The notes beneath the pieces were generated by a model that was given only the letters and a program-made list of their open reading frames with translations, was not told where the DNA came from and searched no databases. The translations under genes were made by a program, and so were the position numbers. From positions 1-42,575 of IMG/VR virus record IMGVR_UViG_3300027997_000003: a stretch of 42,575 nucleotides of DNA. One strand, given 5' to 3'. The stretch comes from a virus. Positions 24,927-35,061 of this stretch are shown piece by piece; position 1 is the first letter of the stretch; the number at the start of each line of letters is the position of its first letter.

Positions 24927-25118
24927 TCATGTCTCTTCTGTATCTTCACGTTGACGCTCCCGTTGAATGCGTTCGTAGATCTCTTCGCGGTGCACCGGGA
25001 TCTCCTTCGGAGCGACGATGCCCAGTCGGACCTGTCCTCCCTTGATGCCGAGCACCTTCACCTCGACCTCGTCACCGATGCAGATCGCTTCACCTATCCT
25101 TCGTGTCAGAATCAACAT
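24927..25118 (-). CDS. csrA: CsrA-family translational regulator, 63 aa
   Basis: Phage-encoded CsrA, a homodimeric RNA-binding protein that binds GGA motifs in leaders and changes translation or decay of mRNA. The match is full length: [18 protein letters not shown] at the start with the RNA-binding Leu4 and Arg6 region, the [20 protein letters not shown] block with the conserved arginine, and the YERIQ helix. The tail (QREDTEET) is acidic. The ribosome binding site is GGAGGTGGGAG. Its start overlaps the end of the Cro/YdaS-like regulator by 29 nt. It could act on host mRNA or on phage leaders (see 38976-39097 and 39223-39236). Confidence 0.93.
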
Positions 25119-25902: not shown

Positions 25903-26331
25903 TTATTCTGTTCCTCTTAGGATGTTGTCGAGTAGCTCAGCAGCTTTCTCGGGATCGTCACGATTCAAAACTGCCACCGAAATTTTGTGCAGGTTTTCAC
26001 GGGTTGAACCATTGATTTCCTCGGCTTCGTTCCCGTGGATAACAAAGATATCGGGAGGTGCTTCAGCAATGACGAAGACGTTGCCCCAGCATTCGAGGTT
26101 CTTCCGAATCCACATCAGCTGCGAGTCCCTCATCCCTTTCTTCCCATCAACGAAGGGAGTCGTGCGATTCCTTGCGTTGTGTTTCAGTTCGATGGTGCCG
26201 CATTGATTTTGTCCAAGCTGATAGTGTAGGTCAGGAAAACCTGCGCATGTGCCGCCGGTCTCGACTCGCGAAAACTGACCTGTGGGCAAGGCTATGTCCC
26301 GCAACCAAACCCACAGACCATGTTCACTCAC
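25903..26331 (-). CDS. VRR-NUC / PD-(D/E)xK endonuclease-like protein, 142 aa
   Basis: The catalytic pattern is AGFPDLHYQLG followed by CGTIELKHN: an Asp in PDLH and an ExK about 14 residues on, as in VRR-NUC and related phage nucleases. An upstream RVETGGTC loop matches the family's glycine-rich approach to the site. Such enzymes cut branched DNA (Holliday-junction or flap). The start is GTG 26331: an in-frame TAA sits directly before it and GGAG lies 6 nt upstream. It begins just downstream (on the - strand) of the pentamer array. Confidence 0.7.
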   Translation of the reverse strand: MSEHGLWVWLRDIALPTGQFSRVETGGTCAGFPDLHYQLGQNQCGTIELKHNARNRTTPFVDGKKGMRDSQLMWIRKNLECWGNVFVIAEAPPDIFVIHGNEAEEINGSTRENLHKISVAVLNRDDPEKAAELLDNILRGTE

Positions 26332-27291
26332 TTAGCGCTCCTGCCCTACCACGATCAACGCGAGCCTACCTGATCGAACCACGACAGACCGTGACTGCCT
26401 CACCGGAGCGTGCCAAAGATTACTCCACGGCACCATGCGCCACCTCGACTGCCGTACCTAGCCAGGACGTTCCGTAAGAGACCCTGCCACACATTGACTG
26501 CCTTACCATGCCGAGCGTTGCCTGATCCCACCAGACCTACCTCACCTGACCATGACTGCCTCGCCTTACCACAACCGACCTTGCCCCACCAAAACTCGCC
26601 TTGCCTCACCATGACTGCCGAACCACAGCGAACCTCACCAGAACATACCAATCCACAACTCACCGGGACTGTCTTACCTGACGAAACCCCAGAGGGGCGT
26701 ACCGTCCTAACCCCACCATCACTGCCGTACCTCACCTAAGCTCGACTCACCATGCGATATCGGACCTGACCAAGACTGCCTGACCTCAGCTTATCGGAAC
26801 AGAACATACCTGACCGAACCTAGACTGCCGTGCCGTGCCCGAACAGAACTCACCAGACCCAGCCTAGCGCTACCCAACCGCGACTGCCGTGCCGTACCCC
26901 AGCAAACCCTACCGACCTGACGCTACCACGACTGCCGCACCTTGCCCTACCATGGCAGAACCAACCATACCTAGCCTGACCTCGACTGCCTTGCCCGACC
27001 ATGACCCAGCGGACCCCGCCGTTCCTTGCCTTACCATGACTGCGTTGCCACACCTTGCCAGAGGCTACCTCGCCACACCTAACCTGACCACGACTGCCGT
27101 ACTGGGCACACCATGCCCTAGCCTACGTTGCCCCGCCTTACCTTAACTGCCGTACCGTTGCCCGCCGTGACGGACCTCGCGATGCCTAACATGACCATGA
27201 CTGCCTTGCCATACCGTGCCTAATCGCACAGGACCTGATCAAACCATGTCGGACCATGACTGCCCCAGCAAACCTAACCGTATGAGTGAGA
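26332..27291 (-). repeat. gene-free array of degenerate pentamers with ~54-bp units
   Basis: No plausible gene. On the - strand the sequence is a chain of GGYNN pentamers (GGT/GGC plus two variable bases). A fixed core, GGCAGTC followed by two bases, comes about every 54 bp. Read on +, the core ACTGCC (or one-base variants) starts at 26340 (weak), 26394, 26448, 26497, 26555, 26614, 26668, 26721, 26775, 26824, 26883, 26931, 26985, 27039, 27093, 27146, 27200 and 27259. Spacings are 48-49, 53-54 or 58-59, differing by one pentamer. Open frames seen through it on both strands are by-products of a stop-free repeat. Function unknown. Confidence 0.85.
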
Positions 27292-27774
27292 TCAGCCTTT
27301 CGCCGCACGCTTCTTCTTAGGAGTGCGACGTGAAGTGGTTCGCCTGACTGCATCGATTGCTTCGATGACAGTCTCTGCGAGCTTGAGCCCCGCCCACTTC
27401 TGTCGAAAGGTATTGATCTGACTTAGAAATCGCTGCTCTGCATCAGTTAGCTCTTCCTCACTCGCATCGAGAGTGACAACGTATTGTCCTTTGTCGGAAG
27501 CAGCAATGTATGCTGGGATGTGAGTTGGCTTCTTGTCTTTCTGCTTCACTTCGATCCGCAACGATGAACGGATCTCAGCAGCTTGGCGCAGTCGATACTT
27601 CGATGCAGCTTTCGACTCATCCCACTCGAACAAGGGGTGACCGGGACAGAGGACATCAGCGGCGGCATCGACCATGCCTTGACCGCTGTTGTCGTTCAGT
27701 GATTCGATCCATTCCCCGATGGCCTGAGCCTCAACGGGGTGCTGCTTGGACCATGAGTAGATGTTGCTGCTCAT
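27292..27774 (-). CDS. conserved-type phage protein with FEWDESKAA motif, 160 aa
   Basis: The segment HPLFEWDESKAASKYRLRQA followed by an AEIRSSLRIEV strand is one I recognise from many phage replication-region proteins of unknown function. The C-terminus is a helix and a very basic tail (RRTTSRRTPKKKRAAK). Its start overlaps the stop of the gene upstream (ATGA) and its stop is next to the pentamer array. DNA binding through the tail is possible. Confidence 0.6.
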   Translation of the reverse strand: MSSNIYSWSKQHPVEAQAIGEWIESLNDNSGQGMVDAAADVLCPGHPLFEWDESKAASKYRLRQAAEIRSSLRIEVKQKDKKPTHIPAYIAASDKGQYVVTLDASEEELTDAEQRFLSQINTFRQKWAGLKLAETVIEAIDAVRRTTSRRTPKKKRAAKG

Positions 27775-28427
27775 GCGGACTTCCTCTTACGAGTTTTCTT
27801 CGGAGCCTGCACTTCCCACATTCCGAAATCACCCCCGAATCCCTTCTTGCCGAGCGGACGCAGCTCACCGATACCAATGGTGGCACCCGCTCGTGCGAGC
27901 AGGTTGGCGACGTCAGTCTCCGTGCAGAGATCTGCATCGAAGTTGAGCGTCATAGTCACTGCCCAGTCGGTATAGATGGGACGGTTGCGCAGGTCGAACG
28001 TGTTGACGATGGCGACCGGTCGCGTGTCGTGGATCGGCTTCTTGCTTTCGATCTTGAGCAACGGAGTGCCGTCCGTCCTATCGAAGCCATCTGCGTCGAT
28101 GAAGAACGCACTCTTCGCTCGCGTCATATCGAGCCCGTCGATGTTGGCGCATGCCCGGATCATCGAAGCTCGAATCTGACGACACGGCACACCGTCCCAA
28201 CCTTGACGGCTGACATAGCGTGCGGCGTTGAACTCGGCTTTGTAATCCTTTGGTGCGCGTGGTTTCTTCACGGCATCGCTAGCGGTCTGCTTCTCCGCGA
28301 TTGCATCAACTGCTTTCTTGGAGAATTTGTTCTGCATCAGCGGGGACATCCCCTGCAGCCGTAATTGGACTGACTGGAAGTTGGGAGGGGTGATCGTAAT
28401 CCTAGATGATTTCTTAGCTGTAGCCAT
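27771..28427 (-). CDS. conserved-type phage protein with Gly-rich C-terminal loop, 218 aa
   Basis: The N-terminus has a strand-rich segment (FQSVQLRLQGMSPLMQNKFS), then a helix and GWDGVPCRQIRASMIRAC. The C-terminus ends in IGIGELRPLGKKGFGGDFG and MWEV, a glycine-rich loop before the last strand. This overall pattern recurs in phages next to recombination genes. The glycine-rich loop superficially recalls RAMP/Cas7-like RNA-binding folds, but that is a guess that needs structure comparison. Preceded by a promoter-like element (28461-28490). Confidence 0.55.
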   Translation of the reverse strand: MATAKKSSRITITPPNFQSVQLRLQGMSPLMQNKFSKKAVDAIAEKQTASDAVKKPRAPKDYKAEFNAARYVSRQGWDGVPCRQIRASMIRACANIDGLDMTRAKSAFFIDADGFDRTDGTPLLKIESKKPIHDTRPVAIVNTFDLRNRPIYTDWAVTMTLNFDADLCTETDVANLLARAGATIGIGELRPLGKKGFGGDFGMWEVQAPKKTRKRKSA

Positions 28428-28497: not shown

Positions 28498-29925
28498 TCA
28501 GACGTCGAGCTTGAGCTGCCTTTCACGGGCTTTGCGAACTCGGCGCGGATTCTTTCGAGCTGCTCCTCGACGCTGAGCTGCTTGCGTTTTGCGGTACTTG
28601 TCGAGGACGAGCGTCGAGAAATCCTTCTTGCGTGCGATTGCTTCAAAATATTCCTCCTCAATGCTGTCGCGTGCTATCAGGAAGTGGTAGTTGATCTGCT
28701 GTGTTCTCTCCATGTCCATGATGCGGAAGCGGGACTGTTCAAACGTGATGTAACTGTGATCCCATGAATAGAAGATGTAGGTGTTCGCCTCGCTCAGATC
28801 GAAGCCGAGACCACTGCGGACCTGCATCACCACGACGTCGGTGTTGAACTTGCCATCCCACTCCGAGCTGCCTGAGATCTCCTTGTGAGTCCATTTGAAT
28901 TCATCGAGCAGCTCGTTGATGGCTTTGATCTCGTGGGTGAAGCGAGCACAGATGACGAGCTTGCGATCATCCATACCAGAGAGCACCTGCATGAGACACG
29001 TCAGCTTCTCGTCACCGACAGGCACGACGAGTCGCTTGCGTTTCTTCTGACCAGGGATGCGCTGCTGGTGGAGAAGGAAGCCTCCGCAGATCTGTTGCAG
29101 CTTCTGCACCTTGGTGACCGGCAGTGGTGCTTCGATGTCGAGTCCATCGACGGTGACTTGCAACTCCTTGTCCATCTGATCGTAGAGTTTCTGTGATTTC
29201 TCACTGAGATCGAAGTACACCTTGCGTTTGCGTATCGTGACTGGCTTCTTGCCCATGGCGATGCGTGCCTCGTTGAATGTTATTCGATAGCTGTACTGAT
29301 GGATGATCCTCAGCAGCTCAGGTCCACGCTGGTAGCCAGTGATCACTTTGTATTGACGACCATCCCTGCGTTCCTTCTCATCGTAGAGCACGTATCGATT
29401 CTTGAACTGCGCGTAGGTGCCGAACGCTACCTTGTGCTGAACGAAATCAAACGTCGCCCAAATCTGCTCGTAACCTTTGTCGATTGGTGTGCCAGTCAAT
29501 GCGAGTCGCCACTGTGCACGCTTGCCAATGGTGCGAACGAAACGTGACTGTGCAGTTCCAGGTTTTTTGATGTGATGACTTTCGTCTGCGATCACCATCA
29601 ACGTGCCACCACTATCCACGAAGTCTTTCGTAAACTTGTACCAATGCCCGCGAAGCGCTAGATTTTTTACGGGTTGTTGATAATTTATGATGTAGAAGGC
29701 ACAGTCCCAGTTGAGGTCGAGATGTTTTTCAATCTCCGATTCCCAAGTGAGTCTTGCTTTCTTCGGGCACACGATGACCACGACGTCAGGCTTGCGTGCA
29801 TCCACGATAGCCAGCGCGATCAGGCATTTGCCTGTGCGTTGCTCAGGAAATAAAGCGAAGCCATCGTGCTGGAGTGCAGCAGCGACAGCCTCGCTTTGAT
29901 ATGAGCGAAGCTCAGTTCTGAGCAC
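28498..29925 (-). CDS. SNF2/DEAD-like helicase, 475 aa
   Basis: A superfamily 2 helicase. Motif I is PEQRTGKC at residues 27-34 (Cys in place of the usual Thr/Ser). Motif II is ADESHHIK near 114. Motif III is ALTGTPI near 141. The second RecA-like half has SGLGFDLSEA, then a motif VI-like QSRFRIMDMERTQQI with its arginines. The C-terminus is basic (AARKNPRRVRKARERQ). Phage enzymes of this type are thought to remodel DNA or displace proteins in recombination-dependent replication. Its start overlaps the stop of the ssDNA-binding-like gene. Confidence 0.8.
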   Translation of the reverse strand: MLRTELRSYQSEAVAAALQHDGFALFPEQRTGKCLIALAIVDARKPDVVVIVCPKKARLTWESEIEKHLDLNWDCAFYIINYQQPVKNLALRGHWYKFTKDFVDSGGTLMVIADESHHIKKPGTAQSRFVRTIGKRAQWRLALTGTPIDKGYEQIWATFDFVQHKVAFGTYAQFKNRYVLYDEKERRDGRQYKVITGYQRGPELLRIIHQYSYRITFNEARIAMGKKPVTIRKRKVYFDLSEKSQKLYDQMDKELQVTVDGLDIEAPLPVTKVQKLQQICGGFLLHQQRIPGQKKRKRLVVPVGDEKLTCLMQVLSGMDDRKLVICARFTHEIKAINELLDEFKWTHKEISGSSEWDGKFNTDVVVMQVRSGLGFDLSEANTYIFYSWDHSYITFEQSRFRIMDMERTQQINYHFLIARDSIEEEYFEAIARKKDFSTLVLDKYRKTQAAQRRGAARKNPRRVRKARERQLKLDV

Positions 29926-30737
29926 TACGCCTTACTTAACTCAGAGGTCGGAATTTCCCACTGGCTTTCTTCGTCATCGACTACGGTTGCAAGGTCGCCC
30001 TCGATGTATTCGATCACACCTTGGACGTCGTCACCGTCCTCGCCCTCGAAGGTGACACGAGCACCAGTGCGGAGGGTTAGTTTCTTCTTCTTAGCAGGAG
30101 CCTTCTTGCTTTTGGCCTTGGCTTTGCGTTTCTTGGGTGCGGGCTCCTCCTCTTCTTCTTCCTCTTCTTCCTCTTCCTCCTCTTCCTCCTCTTCTTCCTC
30201 CTCCTCGACCTCTTCTTCTTCAGGCTCTTCTTCTTCCTCTTCGACAGCAATGCCTTTCTCAGCCATCACTTTCTCAGCGACATCGACGGGCATGTATCCA
30301 GTGACGCGAGGACGCTCAACGTCTTCGTACTCTTCGTTCTGGATGTCGAGACCACATGACTCACCGACAAGTGCATCGATGTCGAGGTCGTACTCGGAGT
30401 CAGGGATGTCAAACCCCATGCACTCCAATGCGGTGCGCAGAACCCACAGTGCCTGCGGTTGCAGACTGAAGTTGTCGAACACGGACGAGCCGATGTTCGT
30501 CTTCCAGCGTACTGCGAGATATTCCGCACCACTGCCCTGTGAAACCTCCCGTGAGATACTTGAGATATCCCCCGTGTACGGTCCATCAGGCGTAGGCATT
30601 GCTCCACCGGATTCGACGTCGGTGAAGTCAACGGTCACCATATTGGCTGATGATCGTCGTCCCCGCTTCTTAGCAGGTGCGCGTTTCTTCACTGGCGCTT
30701 TGCGGCGCTGGCTCTTTGCCTTAGCTCGCGGCGGCAT
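29925..30737 (-). CDS. DUF669-like single-strand DNA-binding protein with polyglutamate tract, 270 aa
   Basis: The core at residues about 34-150 (TVDFTDVESGG, GPYTGDISSIS, FDNFSLQPQALWVLRTALECMGFDI, DIDALVGESCGLDIQ) matches DUF669-type proteins, which are encoded with recombination genes and considered OB-fold ssDNA binders. The N-terminal 30 residues are basic. A 33-residue tract with 31 Glu follows the core, then a basic Lys-rich linker. A C-terminal Tudor/KOW-like strand set comes last (LRTGARVTFEGEDGDDVQGV). It overlaps the ATPase gene and the helicase gene. Confidence 0.75.
   Translation of the reverse strand: MPPRAKAKSQRRKAPVKKRAPAKKRGRRSSANMVTVDFTDVESGGAMPTPDGPYTGDISSISREVSQGSGAEYLAVRWKTNIGSSVFDNFSLQPQALWVLRTALECMGFDIPDSEYDLDIDALVGESCGLDIQNEEYEDVERPRVTGYMPVDVAEKVMAEKGIAVEEEEEEPEEEEVEEEEEEEEEEEEEEEEEEEEEPAPKKRKAKAKSKKAPAKKKKLTLRTGARVTFEGEDGDDVQGVIEYIEGDLATVVDDEESQWEIPTSELSKA
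30144..30242 (-). repeat. GAR triplet repeat coding for polyglutamate
   Basis: Thirty-three codons, 31 of them GAA or GAG, interrupted by one Pro and one Val. On the + strand it reads as a CTC/TTC run. It is in frame, so slippage in steps of three would change the acidic tail length without breaking the gene. It also produces a long antisense serine-rich frame that is not a gene. Confidence 0.85.
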
Positions 30738-31587: not shown

Positions 31588-32570
31588 CAATCGTCTCCGA
31601 TTTCTCGTTGGATGTAGTCTGCTTTGATGACGAAGTCTGTATCGTGCCCGCGTACTTCAGCCTCACAGACACTGCGGAATTCACAAGAACTACAATTGAA
31701 TGGGCTCATGGAGCGTGCAGCTCGTGCTCCTTTCCTACGAACGAGCTGGATGTCTTCGGCTGTCGATAAGAAGTCTTCGACCACCTCGTTGACCATGTGA
31801 GTGGTGGGCTTCGGTAGAAATACACGCTCGAAGAAACTGTCCTCTTTGCCTTCGAGGTGCTTGAGCATCTCCGTGTAATTTCTCGGGTCCTTGTTATTCT
31901 CTGCGATGGTGCGTTGGTAGGTGAAAACATCGCAGTCTAAGTTTTTGCGCTGAGACAGCTCACCATTCTTCAATACCTCTGGCACCGTGGGTGCCTTCGA
32001 GCGTGCGTAGTCCCAGAGCACACCATCGATCTCAATCTCCGGGTTTGATTTGCCCAGTCCCCAGACGTAGAGCAGCAGCTGCAGCTCACTGAACCGATCT
32101 TCTCCTGTAGGAATGGAGCTAAGGAATTTGTGATCGACAATCCAACGACGGTCCTGTGCATCAACAGCTATCTTGTCGATGAATCCGGCGAAGCGCATTT
32201 TGCCGGGGAGATCAAAGTAGACAGGGACCTCTGACTTTTCATAACGCAGTGGATCATGCCGGTACTTGCGCAGGTAACCCTCGAAGATGGCACCGCAGTC
32301 GCCAATGATGTCACCGAACCGCTCCTTCTCTTCCTCGAAGTAGCTTTTGAATTTCTCTGCGTAGCCTGCGAGGACGTCCCACGGATCGTCACCAATGAAT
32401 CCCTTGACGAGCTTCGCATTGATGTATGCGTTCAGCATCTCGTGCAGAATCTCACCTTTGATTAGGCGCACTCCTTTGCGCTGACGTTTGAGCCCTGTTT
32501 TGTAGCGGTACTCCCATGCCTTCTTACATCGTCGAAACGATGAGACTTCGGAATAGCTAACCGTTGGCAT
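31587..32570 (-). CDS. Cas4/RecB-family PD-(D/E)xK nuclease with Fe-S cluster motif, 327 aa
   Basis: The N-terminus SYSEVSSFRRCKKAWEYRY gives Cys15. A C-terminal CSSCEFRSVC gives Cys293, Cys296 and Cys302. Together these are the four ligands of the Cas4/AddB-type iron-sulfur clamp. The nuclease motifs are GEILHEMLN (motif with His), AGFIDKIAVD and IVDHKF, the D...DxK pair. Such enzymes resect DNA ends; in phages they often stand beside an annealase and polymerase as here. No Cas1/Cas2 genes are nearby, so adaptation is not implied. It overlaps polA by 14 nt. Confidence 0.85.
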   Translation of the reverse strand: MPTVSYSEVSSFRRCKKAWEYRYKTGLKRQRKGVRLIKGEILHEMLNAYINAKLVKGFIGDDPWDVLAGYAEKFKSYFEEEKERFGDIIGDCGAIFEGYLRKYRHDPLRYEKSEVPVYFDLPGKMRFAGFIDKIAVDAQDRRWIVDHKFLSSIPTGEDRFSELQLLLYVWGLGKSNPEIEIDGVLWDYARSKAPTVPEVLKNGELSQRKNLDCDVFTYQRTIAENNKDPRNYTEMLKHLEGKEDSFFERVFLPKPTTHMVNEVVEDFLSTAEDIQLVRRKGARAARSMSPFNCSSCEFRSVCEAEVRGHDTDFVIKADYIQREIGDD

Positions 32571-35061
32571 ACTTTGTCCCCCTTCCCCACGGTCCCAGTT
32601 CTGCCTCGCCTTCCATCGGGACGTTGAGTTTGATTTTGAATGTGTCCATCAGCTTCGGACGCCTGATGATGTCGAGCACCTTCGGCACGCACTCATCGAT
32701 GTGCTCGTCCTTCACGATGATCAGCAGCGCGTCGTGGTGCTCACCTACCACCCTGAGCTTCGAGCGCTCAAAGGTCTGGTGACATTCAACCAGAGCCATC
32801 GCTTTGTAATCACCGATGAATCCCTGCACAGGACTGTTCACTGCCTGTCTCTCAGCTTCGGCACGCACGGTGCGATCTCTTACTTGGATGCCGGGAAGAC
32901 GTCGCAGTCGTCCGGTGAGGGTGCGTACATATCCATTCAATCGAGCGAGCTTCTTCACCTTGCGGTGCCACGCTTCGAGCTGTGCGTACAATGCGAAGTA
33001 AGCTGCGCGTGCCTGCTTTGCCTCAGCCATCGACGGCTCGAAGCCGTAATCTTTTTTGCATTGTTCGACATATTTTTTCTCACGCATGCCGTAGATGTAT
33101 CCAAAGTTCGTTGCCTTGGATCGATAGCGTCCGTCGTACCAGCGTGACTCGATGTCGATGCAGTCAGCAGGTCCTACTTCGAGCAGTGTCTCGATGCCTT
33201 GCGAGTAGTGAGTGACATGATCTGCACCGAGACGCTCGCACGTTGGCATCACCAGTTCAGAGAATTCGTTGGTGCCCACCTCCATCGTGTTCATGCAGGT
33301 ACGCCAGTGGATGTCGATGCCCTCATTGAAGCAACGCATCATCTCAGTATCATGCGAGAGGTGCGCTGCCGTGCGTAGCTCAGCCTGCGACACATCAGCA
33401 AAGAGGAACGTCCACCCCGGTAGTGCAGTGACGAGATTGCGAATGGTTCCATCGCGAGGTATCGGATGCAGTGGTGAGCTGTAGCGTCCGGTAACGGTCC
33501 CGTGTAATTTGTAATCGAAATAGTAGGTGTTGCCGATCCGATATTTTTCCCAACCCACGACATAGGTGTTGTAAAGTTTTGCGGTCGTGCGGTACTCCAA
33601 CAGTTTGTCCACCACCTCGTTCCCGATCAGGTGGTAGAGCGCGGCCTCAGATGTGCTCTTCTGCTTTTTCGCCGTGAAAATTTTGCAGGGTAGTCCGAGA
33701 TCCTCATATAGGACGTCACCCACCTGCTTCGGAGCGTCCCAGTTAATCTCGTAGCCGATCAGCTCGTTCAGCTCACGGTTGAGCGTGATCTTCTTCGACA
33801 GCAGCTTGAGCCCCTCCTCCTTGCGTGCGACTGGATCGATGGTGAGCCCCTCCAGCTCGATGTCCTCCATCGCTCGCGCTCCAGGCATCGTGAGTCGCCA
33901 GAAGAGACGATGTAGCTCAGGGTGCTGCTCCAGCATGCCCTCAAGGATGTGACCCAACCTGAGCGTGTACGCGCCGTCCTTGGCGCAATACTCGTAGTTC
34001 AGCGTGGGCTTCTCCGACCTGCCGTTTTTGATCGCCAGATCGACGTCGTACTCGGGCTCGTCATCGAGGTGAGCACGCACCATGCTGGTGAGGTCGTGGT
34101 TCAGATTCTCGTCAAGCAAATGGTGTGCCAGCATGGTGTCGAAGCTCAACCGGAAGCTCCCACCGAACTGTATACGCATCCACTTGTTGTCGAATTTTCC
34201 GTTCTGCCCGTAGGTGCGCTTGCGATCTCGACGTGCGATGAAAAACAGCAGCTGCATCAGCCTCTTGAGTGCGTTACCGTGCGCAAAAGGACTGTGGGAA
34301 AAGCGTTGATAATCAGGGTGCATGTGACCGGGTATGACCCACGTCCGTTCTTCGAGAGCTATCGCGATGGCTGTGATGTACCCGTTCGGGTCGAATGGGA
34401 AGAGGCCGGAAGTTTCACAGTCGAAGGCGAACTCGGGAGCCTCCTCGAATTCACGGATAAACTGGTCGAGGTTGCCCTTGCGAACGACGTTCCAATTCAC
34501 TGTGTCAGTGCGGAGCCCACCTTCAAGTAGTCGAGCGAGGCGAGCGATGTCATCCTTGAAGCCGGGGAGCTTCGATGGATCTCGGAGGCAGTAGGCTGGA
34601 TGGAAAACTGGGAAGCCGGTGTAGCTCACCTTTTCGTTCTCGATGATCTCACCGTGGAACTGGTTGATTTTTGCCTTGCCACGGAAGAGCGTCTTCGTTG
34701 CAGGCACACCTGCGGTGACGACAACCTGTGGACAAAGTGTGGATAACTCTTCTTCGAGATACGGTTTGCACGCTTTGATCTCTGCAGCCGTTGGCGTGCG
34801 GTTGTTTGGTGGGCGACACTTGACGAGGTTGGTGATGTAGGTCTTGTGGATAAGTCCGTGGCGATTCAGCTCAGTGCGTAAAATCTGACCACTGTCACCA
34901 ATGAATGGCACACCACGACGATCCTCGTTTGCTCCCGGTGCCTCACCAATGACCACCACTTGCACGTCATCGGACGACTGTGGACCGTCACCTCGCATGC
35001 ACACAGTAGATGCGTTCGCGTGTAAGGGGCAAAGCGTGCAGCTGGGGTTTATGCTCGTCAC
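32557..35061 (-). CDS. fusion: family 4 uracil-DNA glycosylase + 3'-5' exonuclease + family A DNA polymerase, 834 aa
   Basis: Residues 1-190 are a family 4 UDG: CTLCPL at 8-13, GEAPGANEDRRGVPFIGD, KCRPPNNR and IKACKP (the four Cys of a 4Fe-4S site), and HPAYCLR. Residues about 205-370 are a DnaQ-like exonuclease: FDCETSGL, NGKFDNKW and YCAKDGAY hold the acidic set. The rest is PolA: motif A DVSQAELR, motif B RSKATNFGYIYG (Phe at the E. coli 762 position) and motif C HHDALL (Ala where Glu is usual). It starts at GTG 35061; the cluster cysteines need this start. It is likely the replicative polymerase with uracil scanning in cis. Confidence 0.9.
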   Translation of the reverse strand: MTSINPSCTLCPLHANASTVCMRGDGPQSSDDVQVVVIGEAPGANEDRRGVPFIGDSGQILRTELNRHGLIHKTYITNLVKCRPPNNRTPTAAEIKACKPYLEEELSTLCPQVVVTAGVPATKTLFRGKAKINQFHGEIIENEKVSYTGFPVFHPAYCLRDPSKLPGFKDDIARLARLLEGGLRTDTVNWNVVRKGNLDQFIREFEEAPEFAFDCETSGLFPFDPNGYITAIAIALEERTWVIPGHMHPDYQRFSHSPFAHGNALKRLMQLLFFIARRDRKRTYGQNGKFDNKWMRIQFGGSFRLSFDTMLAHHLLDENLNHDLTSMVRAHLDDEPEYDVDLAIKNGRSEKPTLNYEYCAKDGAYTLRLGHILEGMLEQHPELHRLFWRLTMPGARAMEDIELEGLTIDPVARKEEGLKLLSKKITLNRELNELIGYEINWDAPKQVGDVLYEDLGLPCKIFTAKKQKSTSEAALYHLIGNEVVDKLLEYRTTAKLYNTYVVGWEKYRIGNTYYFDYKLHGTVTGRYSSPLHPIPRDGTIRNLVTALPGWTFLFADVSQAELRTAAHLSHDTEMMRCFNEGIDIHWRTCMNTMEVGTNEFSELVMPTCERLGADHVTHYSQGIETLLEVGPADCIDIESRWYDGRYRSKATNFGYIYGMREKKYVEQCKKDYGFEPSMAEAKQARAAYFALYAQLEAWHRKVKKLARLNGYVRTLTGRLRRLPGIQVRDRTVRAEAERQAVNSPVQGFIGDYKAMALVECHQTFERSKLRVVGEHHDALLIIVKDEHIDECVPKVLDIIRRPKLMDTFKIKLNVPMEGEAELGPWGRGTKYANG

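What the first reader, a model, noticed from the sequence alone, without database searches (positions are those of the whole stretch)
26332..27291. 960-bp gene-free array of degenerate GGYNN pentamers inside the replication operon
The - strand is a chain of five-base units starting GGT or GGC, about 18 times interrupted by a fixed GGCAGTC core. Single bases vary freely, but the 5-nt phase and the ~54-bp higher period are kept. That suggests selection for rhythm and core, not for a coded protein. It sits between a branched-DNA nuclease gene and two conserved unknowns. I know of no named element that looks like this. Candidate roles are a replication origin, packaging or recombination site, long structured RNA, or a docking array for a phage DNA-binding protein.
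Basis: partly seen in the sequence, partly recalled or inferred. Interest (0 to 1): 0.9.

Follow-up and report, generated by a model that had tools for sequence, protein, structure and literature searches.

The report
Phage guide-RNA array (VIPR system)
The strange five-base rhythm is a string of about 16 guide RNAs of a recently described phage weapon called VIPR, and one of the guides spells out, two bases in every three, a piece of the DNA-polymerase gene of closely related rival phages.

Summary
In detail: window 26332-27291 (- strand) is a non-coding chain of GGYNN pentamers with a strong lag-5 and lag-54 signal. It forms a cassette with the two 'conserved unknowns' beside it. The 218-aa protein (27771-28427) is RAMP/Cas7-like, and its family profile matches the solved 'SUSP1 Vipr protein' (E=2e-17). 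The other (27292-27774) is its usual neighbour. This is the Viral Interference Programmable Repeat (VIPR) system of a 2026 preprint (PMC13142463), whose GGY/NN guide RNAs read DNA with one skipped base per pair. About 50 viral-contig loci carry such arrays; 42 of 51 have the Vipr homolog, against 1 of 74 control loci. Decoding the window's first guide by the one-base-skip rule gave 14 exact hits. Thirteen lie in the uracil-glycosylase/DNA-polymerase gene of sister phages, every skipped base at a wobble position. The sister contigs searched show no Vipr, and the phage's own gene has four mismatches. A skip-0 control hit no relatives. The GGCA-GTC 'core' is a 4-nt phase reset marking where each guide begins. 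Verdict: a new member of a newly known system. The preprint's supplement, which may already describe this array layout, could not be read.

The parts
26332..27291 (-). vrRNA guide array: about 16-17 reset-delimited guide segments of GGYNN units
   Evidence: lag-5/lag-54 periodicity; unit parse; association with vipr in other phages; target of guide G1
27206..27264 (-). Guide G1: GGCA reset plus NN string AT CC AT TT CA CC GC TA AC AT AA; the first 9 NN (18 bases) match the UDG-DNA polymerase gene of 13 sister phages under the 1-nt skip rule
27771..28427 (-). vipr gene: 218-aa RAMP/Cas7-like protein (phrog_4652 family)
   Evidence: family profile hits PDB 36pp 'SUSP1 Vipr protein' E=2e-17; AlphaFold model pLDDT 88 matches type VII Cas7 and Csm3 folds
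27292..27774 (-). vap-like accessory gene: 160 aa, phrog_15946, function unknown
   Evidence: phrog_15946; found with vipr and array in 34 of 51 array loci; confident model but no PDB fold match
32557..35061 (-). The phage's own homolog of G1's target (UDG + DNA polymerase A); carries 4 mismatches in 18 at the target site, so it should escape its own guide
   Evidence: Pfam UDG and DNA_pol_A; site comparison

Best explanation
The array is the guide-RNA part of a VIPR system carried as an accessory cassette (vipr, vap, array) between the helicase and nuclease genes of a temperate-or-lytic phage of unknown host. It is transcribed on the - strand with vipr and vap. Each stretch from one GGCA reset to the next (usually 9-12 units) is one guide. 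Vipr subunits presumably hold the GGY triplets, and the exposed NN pairs read double-stranded DNA as NNxNNxNNx, with the skipped base falling on codon wobble positions. Bound complexes would repress genes of rival phages; guide G1 aims at the DNA polymerase of sister phages. Shown here: array, gene association, strand rule, family membership of Vipr, the G1 target and self-mismatch, and guide boundaries. Inferred from the preprint and not shown here: transcription, RNP assembly, DNA binding and repression.
For: Vipr profile matches solved SUSP1 Vipr, E=2e-17, and folds like Cas7/Csm3. 42 of 51 array loci carry vipr versus 1 of 74 non-array loci, and the G-rich strand is the gene strand in all. 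Over 363 guides, matches of 16/18 or better: skip-1 48, skip-1 shuffled 22, skip-0 20, skip-2 20, skip-3 24. G1 exact pattern: 14 hits, 13 in the same gene of sister phages, skip = wobble; own gene 14/18; skip-0 control 6 hits, none related. In four guide-target pairs (window, L005, L043, L128) the match begins at the first NN after the reset. Orthologous guides keep NN better than scaffold, Fisher p=0.016. Cassette absent from the site in the sister phages.
Against: Only G1 of the five window guides scanned has a convincing target; G7, G9, G12 and G16 gave 1, 1, 4 and 1 hits, about chance level and in unrelated contigs. The 13 G1 hits share one conserved peptide, so they count as one independent event. 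G1's last two NN are not matched in most targets. Four segments contain irregular 4-nt units that break the guide. No structured 3' tail like that of SUSP1 vrRNAs was found, and SUSP1 Vap1 is not detectably related to this Vap. No RNA data.
Confidence: 0.93

Rival explanations
1. The pentamer array is an RNA or DNA scaffold that a Cas7-like filament coats for a structural or regulatory purpose (for example a decoy or sponge), and the NN bases carry no target information.
For: The GGY rhythm alone would suffice for protein docking; most window guides have no detectable target; TRAP is a known case of a ring protein reading a 5-nt period (own knowledge).
Against: G1 target in 13 sister phages with self-mismatch; skip-1 excess over other skips and shuffles; reciprocal portal-gene targeting between L005 and L006-L008, and a guide of L043 aimed at rival vipr genes; NN conserved more than scaffold.
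Confidence: 0.04
2. A DNA site: replication origin, partition/centromere or recombination site read as double-stranded DNA.
For: It lies in the replication gene block and has strong GC skew.
Against: Strand always equals the gene strand although the array may lie before, between or after the two genes; in Gordonia phage Ecliptus the cassette lies among tail genes; the sister phages replicate with the same gene block but show no array at the site.
Confidence: 0.02
3. Decayed tandem repeat or relic of a repetitive protein gene with no present function.
For: Low identity between units; not found by tandem repeat software.
Against: Phase and reset kept across dozens of loci with widely diverged Vipr proteins; guides inside one array are no more alike than guides of different arrays (4.92 versus 4.75 of 18 matches), which is not how decaying duplicates look; constraint on NN.
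Confidence: 0.01

Closest known systems
VIPR (Viral Interference Programmable Repeat), PMC13142463 / doi 10.64898/2026.04.26.720920
   Same: RAMP-like Vipr, small vap gene, GGY/NN repeat tracts of 9-16 units, phage location, 1-nt skip rule with skip at codon wobble, targets in competing phages
   Different: SUSP1 (type II) has four discrete ~100-nt vrRNAs each with a 3' tail (read in L195); here about 16 guides run head to tail with only a 4-nt GGCA reset between them and no tail was found; the Vap is of another family. The preprint mentions 'staggered arrays with overlapping vrRNAs' (its fig. S18), which may be this layout; the supplement could not be read.
Class 1 CRISPR-Cas effector RAMPs (Cas7 of type VII, Csm3 of type III)
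   Same: Fold of the predicted Vipr, glycine-rich loop, periodic guide reading
   Different: No CRISPR repeats or spacers; discontinuous 2-of-3 code in a 5-nt RNA scaffold; single small protein
TIGR-Tas (tandem interspaced guide RNA, PMC12045711)
   Same: Phage-borne tandem guide array read by one protein
   Different: TIGR-Tas was seen here only as a title and abstract in a search list; the window protein matches Vipr and Cas7/Csm3 instead, and the pentamer scaffold is not described in that abstract
TRAP (Trp RNA-binding attenuation protein) sites
   Same: 5-nt periodic RNA motif with about 11 units per ~54 nt
   Different: Coincidence: TRAP reads (G/U)AG, no TRAP homolog is involved, and NN carry information here (own knowledge)

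Membership tests
VIPR system | RAMP-type Vipr protein beside the array | tested here: met
   profile to PDB 36pp Vipr E=2e-17; Cas7/Csm3 fold
VIPR system | Tandem GGY/NN repeats, 9-16 units per guide | tested here: met
   unit parse, mostly 9-12 units between resets
VIPR system | Minimal locus with one vap gene | tested here: met
   phrog_15946 gene adjoins vipr and array in the window and most relatives; not detectably related to SUSP1 Vap1
VIPR system | NN string finds natural targets under the 1-nt skip rule, skip at wobble | tested here: met
   G1: 13 of 14 hits in one gene of sister phages; class-wide skip-1 excess
VIPR system | Targets are competing mobile elements, not self | tested here: met
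   sister phages 18/18, own gene 14/18
VIPR system | 3' structured tail on the vrRNA (described for the type II systems) | tested here: inconclusive
   no Rfam match, no excess folding; tail may be a type II feature only
VIPR system | vrRNA transcribed and bound by Vipr | not testable with these tools
   needs sRNA-seq and pull-down
VIPR type (I-VII) | Assignment to one of the seven types | not tested
CRISPR-Cas | Array of identical repeats with unique spacers, and cas genes | tested here: not met
   no tandem repeat called at the array; the gene beside it is Vipr, and the Vap has no Pfam match above cut-off

The most novel reading that the evidence does not exclude
This class of continuous, reset-delimited arrays gains new guides by an active writing step that copies two of every three bases of a rival's coding sequence into the pentamer scaffold. 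That would be an acquisition process without known parallel. Hints: only about 6 of 16-17 guides are shared between the window and its close relative L002, guides in one array are not duplicates of each other, and targets sit in conserved genes of near relatives. Duplication, mutation and selection is not excluded.
Probability: 0.08. Interest if true: 0.95.

Novelty: new member of a known kind. Interest (0 to 1): 0.6.

Why it matters
VIPR is proposed as an ancestor-like relative of CRISPR, with a discontinuous guide code. The window gives an independent test of that code in a lineage far from the two studied systems (Vipr sequence similarity only detectable by profile): a guide that decodes to a piece of the polymerase of sister phages lacking the system, with the phage's own gene escaping. 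It fixes guide boundaries in continuous arrays (the GGCA reset), shows the cassette as an insertion with an empty counterpart site, and points to cultured Mycobacterium smegmatis and Gordonia phages (Saal, UmaThurman, Ecliptus) that carry the same cassette and can be studied in the laboratory. How guides are acquired remains open and becomes testable.

Tried and rejected
Protein-coding repeat: rejected (no long frame, 5-nt steps). Structured RNA: no excess folding and no Rfam hit. CsrA sponge (the phage encodes CsrA): the motif is GGY, whereas CsrA reads GGA (own knowledge). TRAP-like ring: considered because 11 units give ~54 nt; dropped once the partner proved to be Vipr. Cellular origin: the genome-collection scan gave only 3 true arrays on contigs of two genomes (Microvirga, a Lachnospiraceae MAG), the rest chance. 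BLAST of the window array against phages found nothing; a GGC-rich array (L098) found Mycobacterium, Gordonia and cyanophage arrays. Targets for the other window guides in seven sister phages: none above shuffles. Reading NN substitution bias from all similar guide pairs: abandoned, because at the 30% cut-off non-orthologous pairs dominate; only the six hand-registered window/L002 pairs are used. PDB fold of the Vap: no match. First paper searches with generic terms found nothing.

Full report
What is there. The - strand of window 26332-27291 is a chain of pentamers. Autocorrelation against 300 dinucleotide-preserving shuffles gives z=9.6 at lag 5 and z=12.1 at lag 54, with strong signals at 10, 15, 49 and 59. 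Parsing into units gives 174 five-base and 22 four-base units. The fixed core GGCAGTC is a four-base unit GGCA followed by a unit starting GTC, so the core is a phase reset. Spacings of 49, 54 and 59 are 10, 11 and 12 units. The array runs from just after the stop of the gene at 27292-27774 to just before the start of the gene at 25903-26331. No ORF explains it; it does not fold better than shuffles.

It is a class, not a singleton. In 350 clean segments the number of units per segment peaks at 10-12, the first unit after the reset is usually GTC or GGC, and GGY is best kept next to the resets. In 84,980 bacterial and archaeal genomes only three true arrays appeared with a stricter pattern, on contigs of two genomes. 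Among annotated phages, arrays were found in Mycobacterium, Gordonia and one cyanophage.

The partner genes. A homolog of the 218-aa protein of 27771-28427 lies beside the array in phages Saal, UmaThurman, Ecliptus and Cy-LDV1, and so does a homolog of the 160-aa protein. Of 51 array loci, 42 encode the first, 36 the second and 34 both. Nine lack the first: in eight the expected side is cut off or only a short stretch is stored, and one (L034) is ambiguous. Of 74 pattern hits without an array only one (L126) has them. The order varies (genes then array; gene, array, gene; array then genes), but the G-rich strand is the gene strand wherever both are seen. That argues for a transcribed element.

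Identity. A profile of 43 members of the first protein matches one PDB entry, 36pp, 'SUSP1 Vipr protein', E=2e-17, over nearly the whole length. The AlphaFold model of the window protein (pLDDT 88) has as best fold matches Cas7 of type VII CRISPR and Csm subunits. The preprint PMC13142463 describes VIPR: a RAMP-like Vipr, a vap gene, and vrRNAs of GGY/NN repeats that recognise double-stranded DNA through the NN pairs with one skipped base, and repress competing phages. It reports 9-16 repeats per vrRNA and skip bases mostly at codon wobble positions. Every one of these features that can be tested from sequence is met here. The accessory protein has a confident model but no PDB match and is not detectably related to SUSP1 Vap1.

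Reading the guides. From 57 array loci, 363 unique nine-NN guides were compared with all DNA in hand, arrays masked. Matches of 16/18 or better numbered 48 for skip 1, against 22 for order-shuffled skip 1, and 20, 20 and 24 for skips 0, 2 and 3. The best cases are telling. A guide of L043 matches vipr genes of L028 (19/20) and of Gordonia phage Ecliptus (18/20). A guide of L005 matches a gene of L007 and L008 (23/24) that reads like a phage portal protein, and a guide of L006 matches the adjoining codons of the same gene in L004 and L005 (17/20). These L00x loci are the window's near relatives, so the targeting is reciprocal within the clade.

The window's own guide. G1 (window 27206-27264) reads AT CC AT TT CA CC GC TA AC. 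The exact skip-1 pattern gave 14 hits in viral contigs. Thirteen lie in one gene, coding for MPIFHPAYT, with wobble bases differing among phages. The gene is the homolog of the window's uracil-DNA glycosylase/DNA polymerase A fusion (Pfam) in sister phages about 66-71% identical in that protein. The window's own gene reads FPVFHPAYC there, 14/18, and the close relative L002 offers at best 13/18 in its whole genome. The skip-0 version of the same letters gave 6 hits, none in a contig with homologs of window genes. Four other guides gave 1, 4, 1 and 1 hits, about what chance predicts. The 13 hits are one evolutionary event, not 13; the weight comes from their falling in the window phage's own relatives, which none of the background hits convincingly does (one of them, L163, has a weak helicase match).

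Guide boundaries and evolution. In four independent guide-target pairs the match starts at the first NN after the reset and runs 9-12 pairs, so the reset is the guide boundary. Comparing the window with L002, six guides are clearly shared and the rest are different. In the shared ones the scaffold has 20 changes in 171 sites and the NN positions 4 in 114 (Fisher p=0.016), the pattern expected if NN is the information. Guides within an array are not recent copies of each other. The sister phages that G1 matches show no Vipr on the contigs held. In five of the seven examined at length, helicase and nuclease genes lie 62-73 bases apart where the window has the 2.1-kb cassette; in the other two the gaps are larger (about 270 and 400 bases). 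The cassette is therefore an accessory insertion.

What is shown and what is inferred. Shown by sequence: array, class, gene association, strand, family, a target for one guide, self-mismatch, guide boundaries. Inferred from the preprint: transcription, assembly, DNA binding, repression. Not settled: the VIPR type, whether the preprint's 'staggered arrays' are this layout, the role of the Vap, and how guides are acquired.

Noticed in passing
window 24927-25118 (-): The phage encodes a CsrA-family RNA regulator downstream in the same gene run.
   Followed up: no
L146 6363-6686 (Gordonia phage UmaThurman gp40) and L144 6824 (Saal gp51 start): Public annotation places a hypothetical protein on the vrRNA array in UmaThurman, and starts the Saal Vipr gene inside the array; both look like gene-calling errors.
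   Followed up: partly
L045 and L098 (one contig, IMGVR 3300036759_000122): One viral contig carries two separate arrays.
   Followed up: no
L102 12923-14426: Two vipr-like ORFs in one locus with an extended array region.
   Followed up: no
L147 6100-8652 (Gordonia phage Ecliptus): The vipr-array-vap cassette sits between tail chaperone and tape-measure genes, next to HTH genes, like a movable cassette.
   Followed up: no
L139 (Microvirga zambiensis), L131 and L132 (Lachnospiraceae MAG): Arrays in bacterial genome records; L131 and L139 also have Vipr homologs. Whether these lie in prophages was not checked.
   Followed up: no
L043 guide against vipr genes of L028, L147, L009, L022, L066, L115: One guide aims at conserved codons (SLLDAGGM) of rival vipr genes, i.e. 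VIPR against VIPR.
   Followed up: partly
window 30144-30242: Run of GAG/GAA codons giving a long poly-glutamate tract in the 29925-30737 protein.
   Followed up: no
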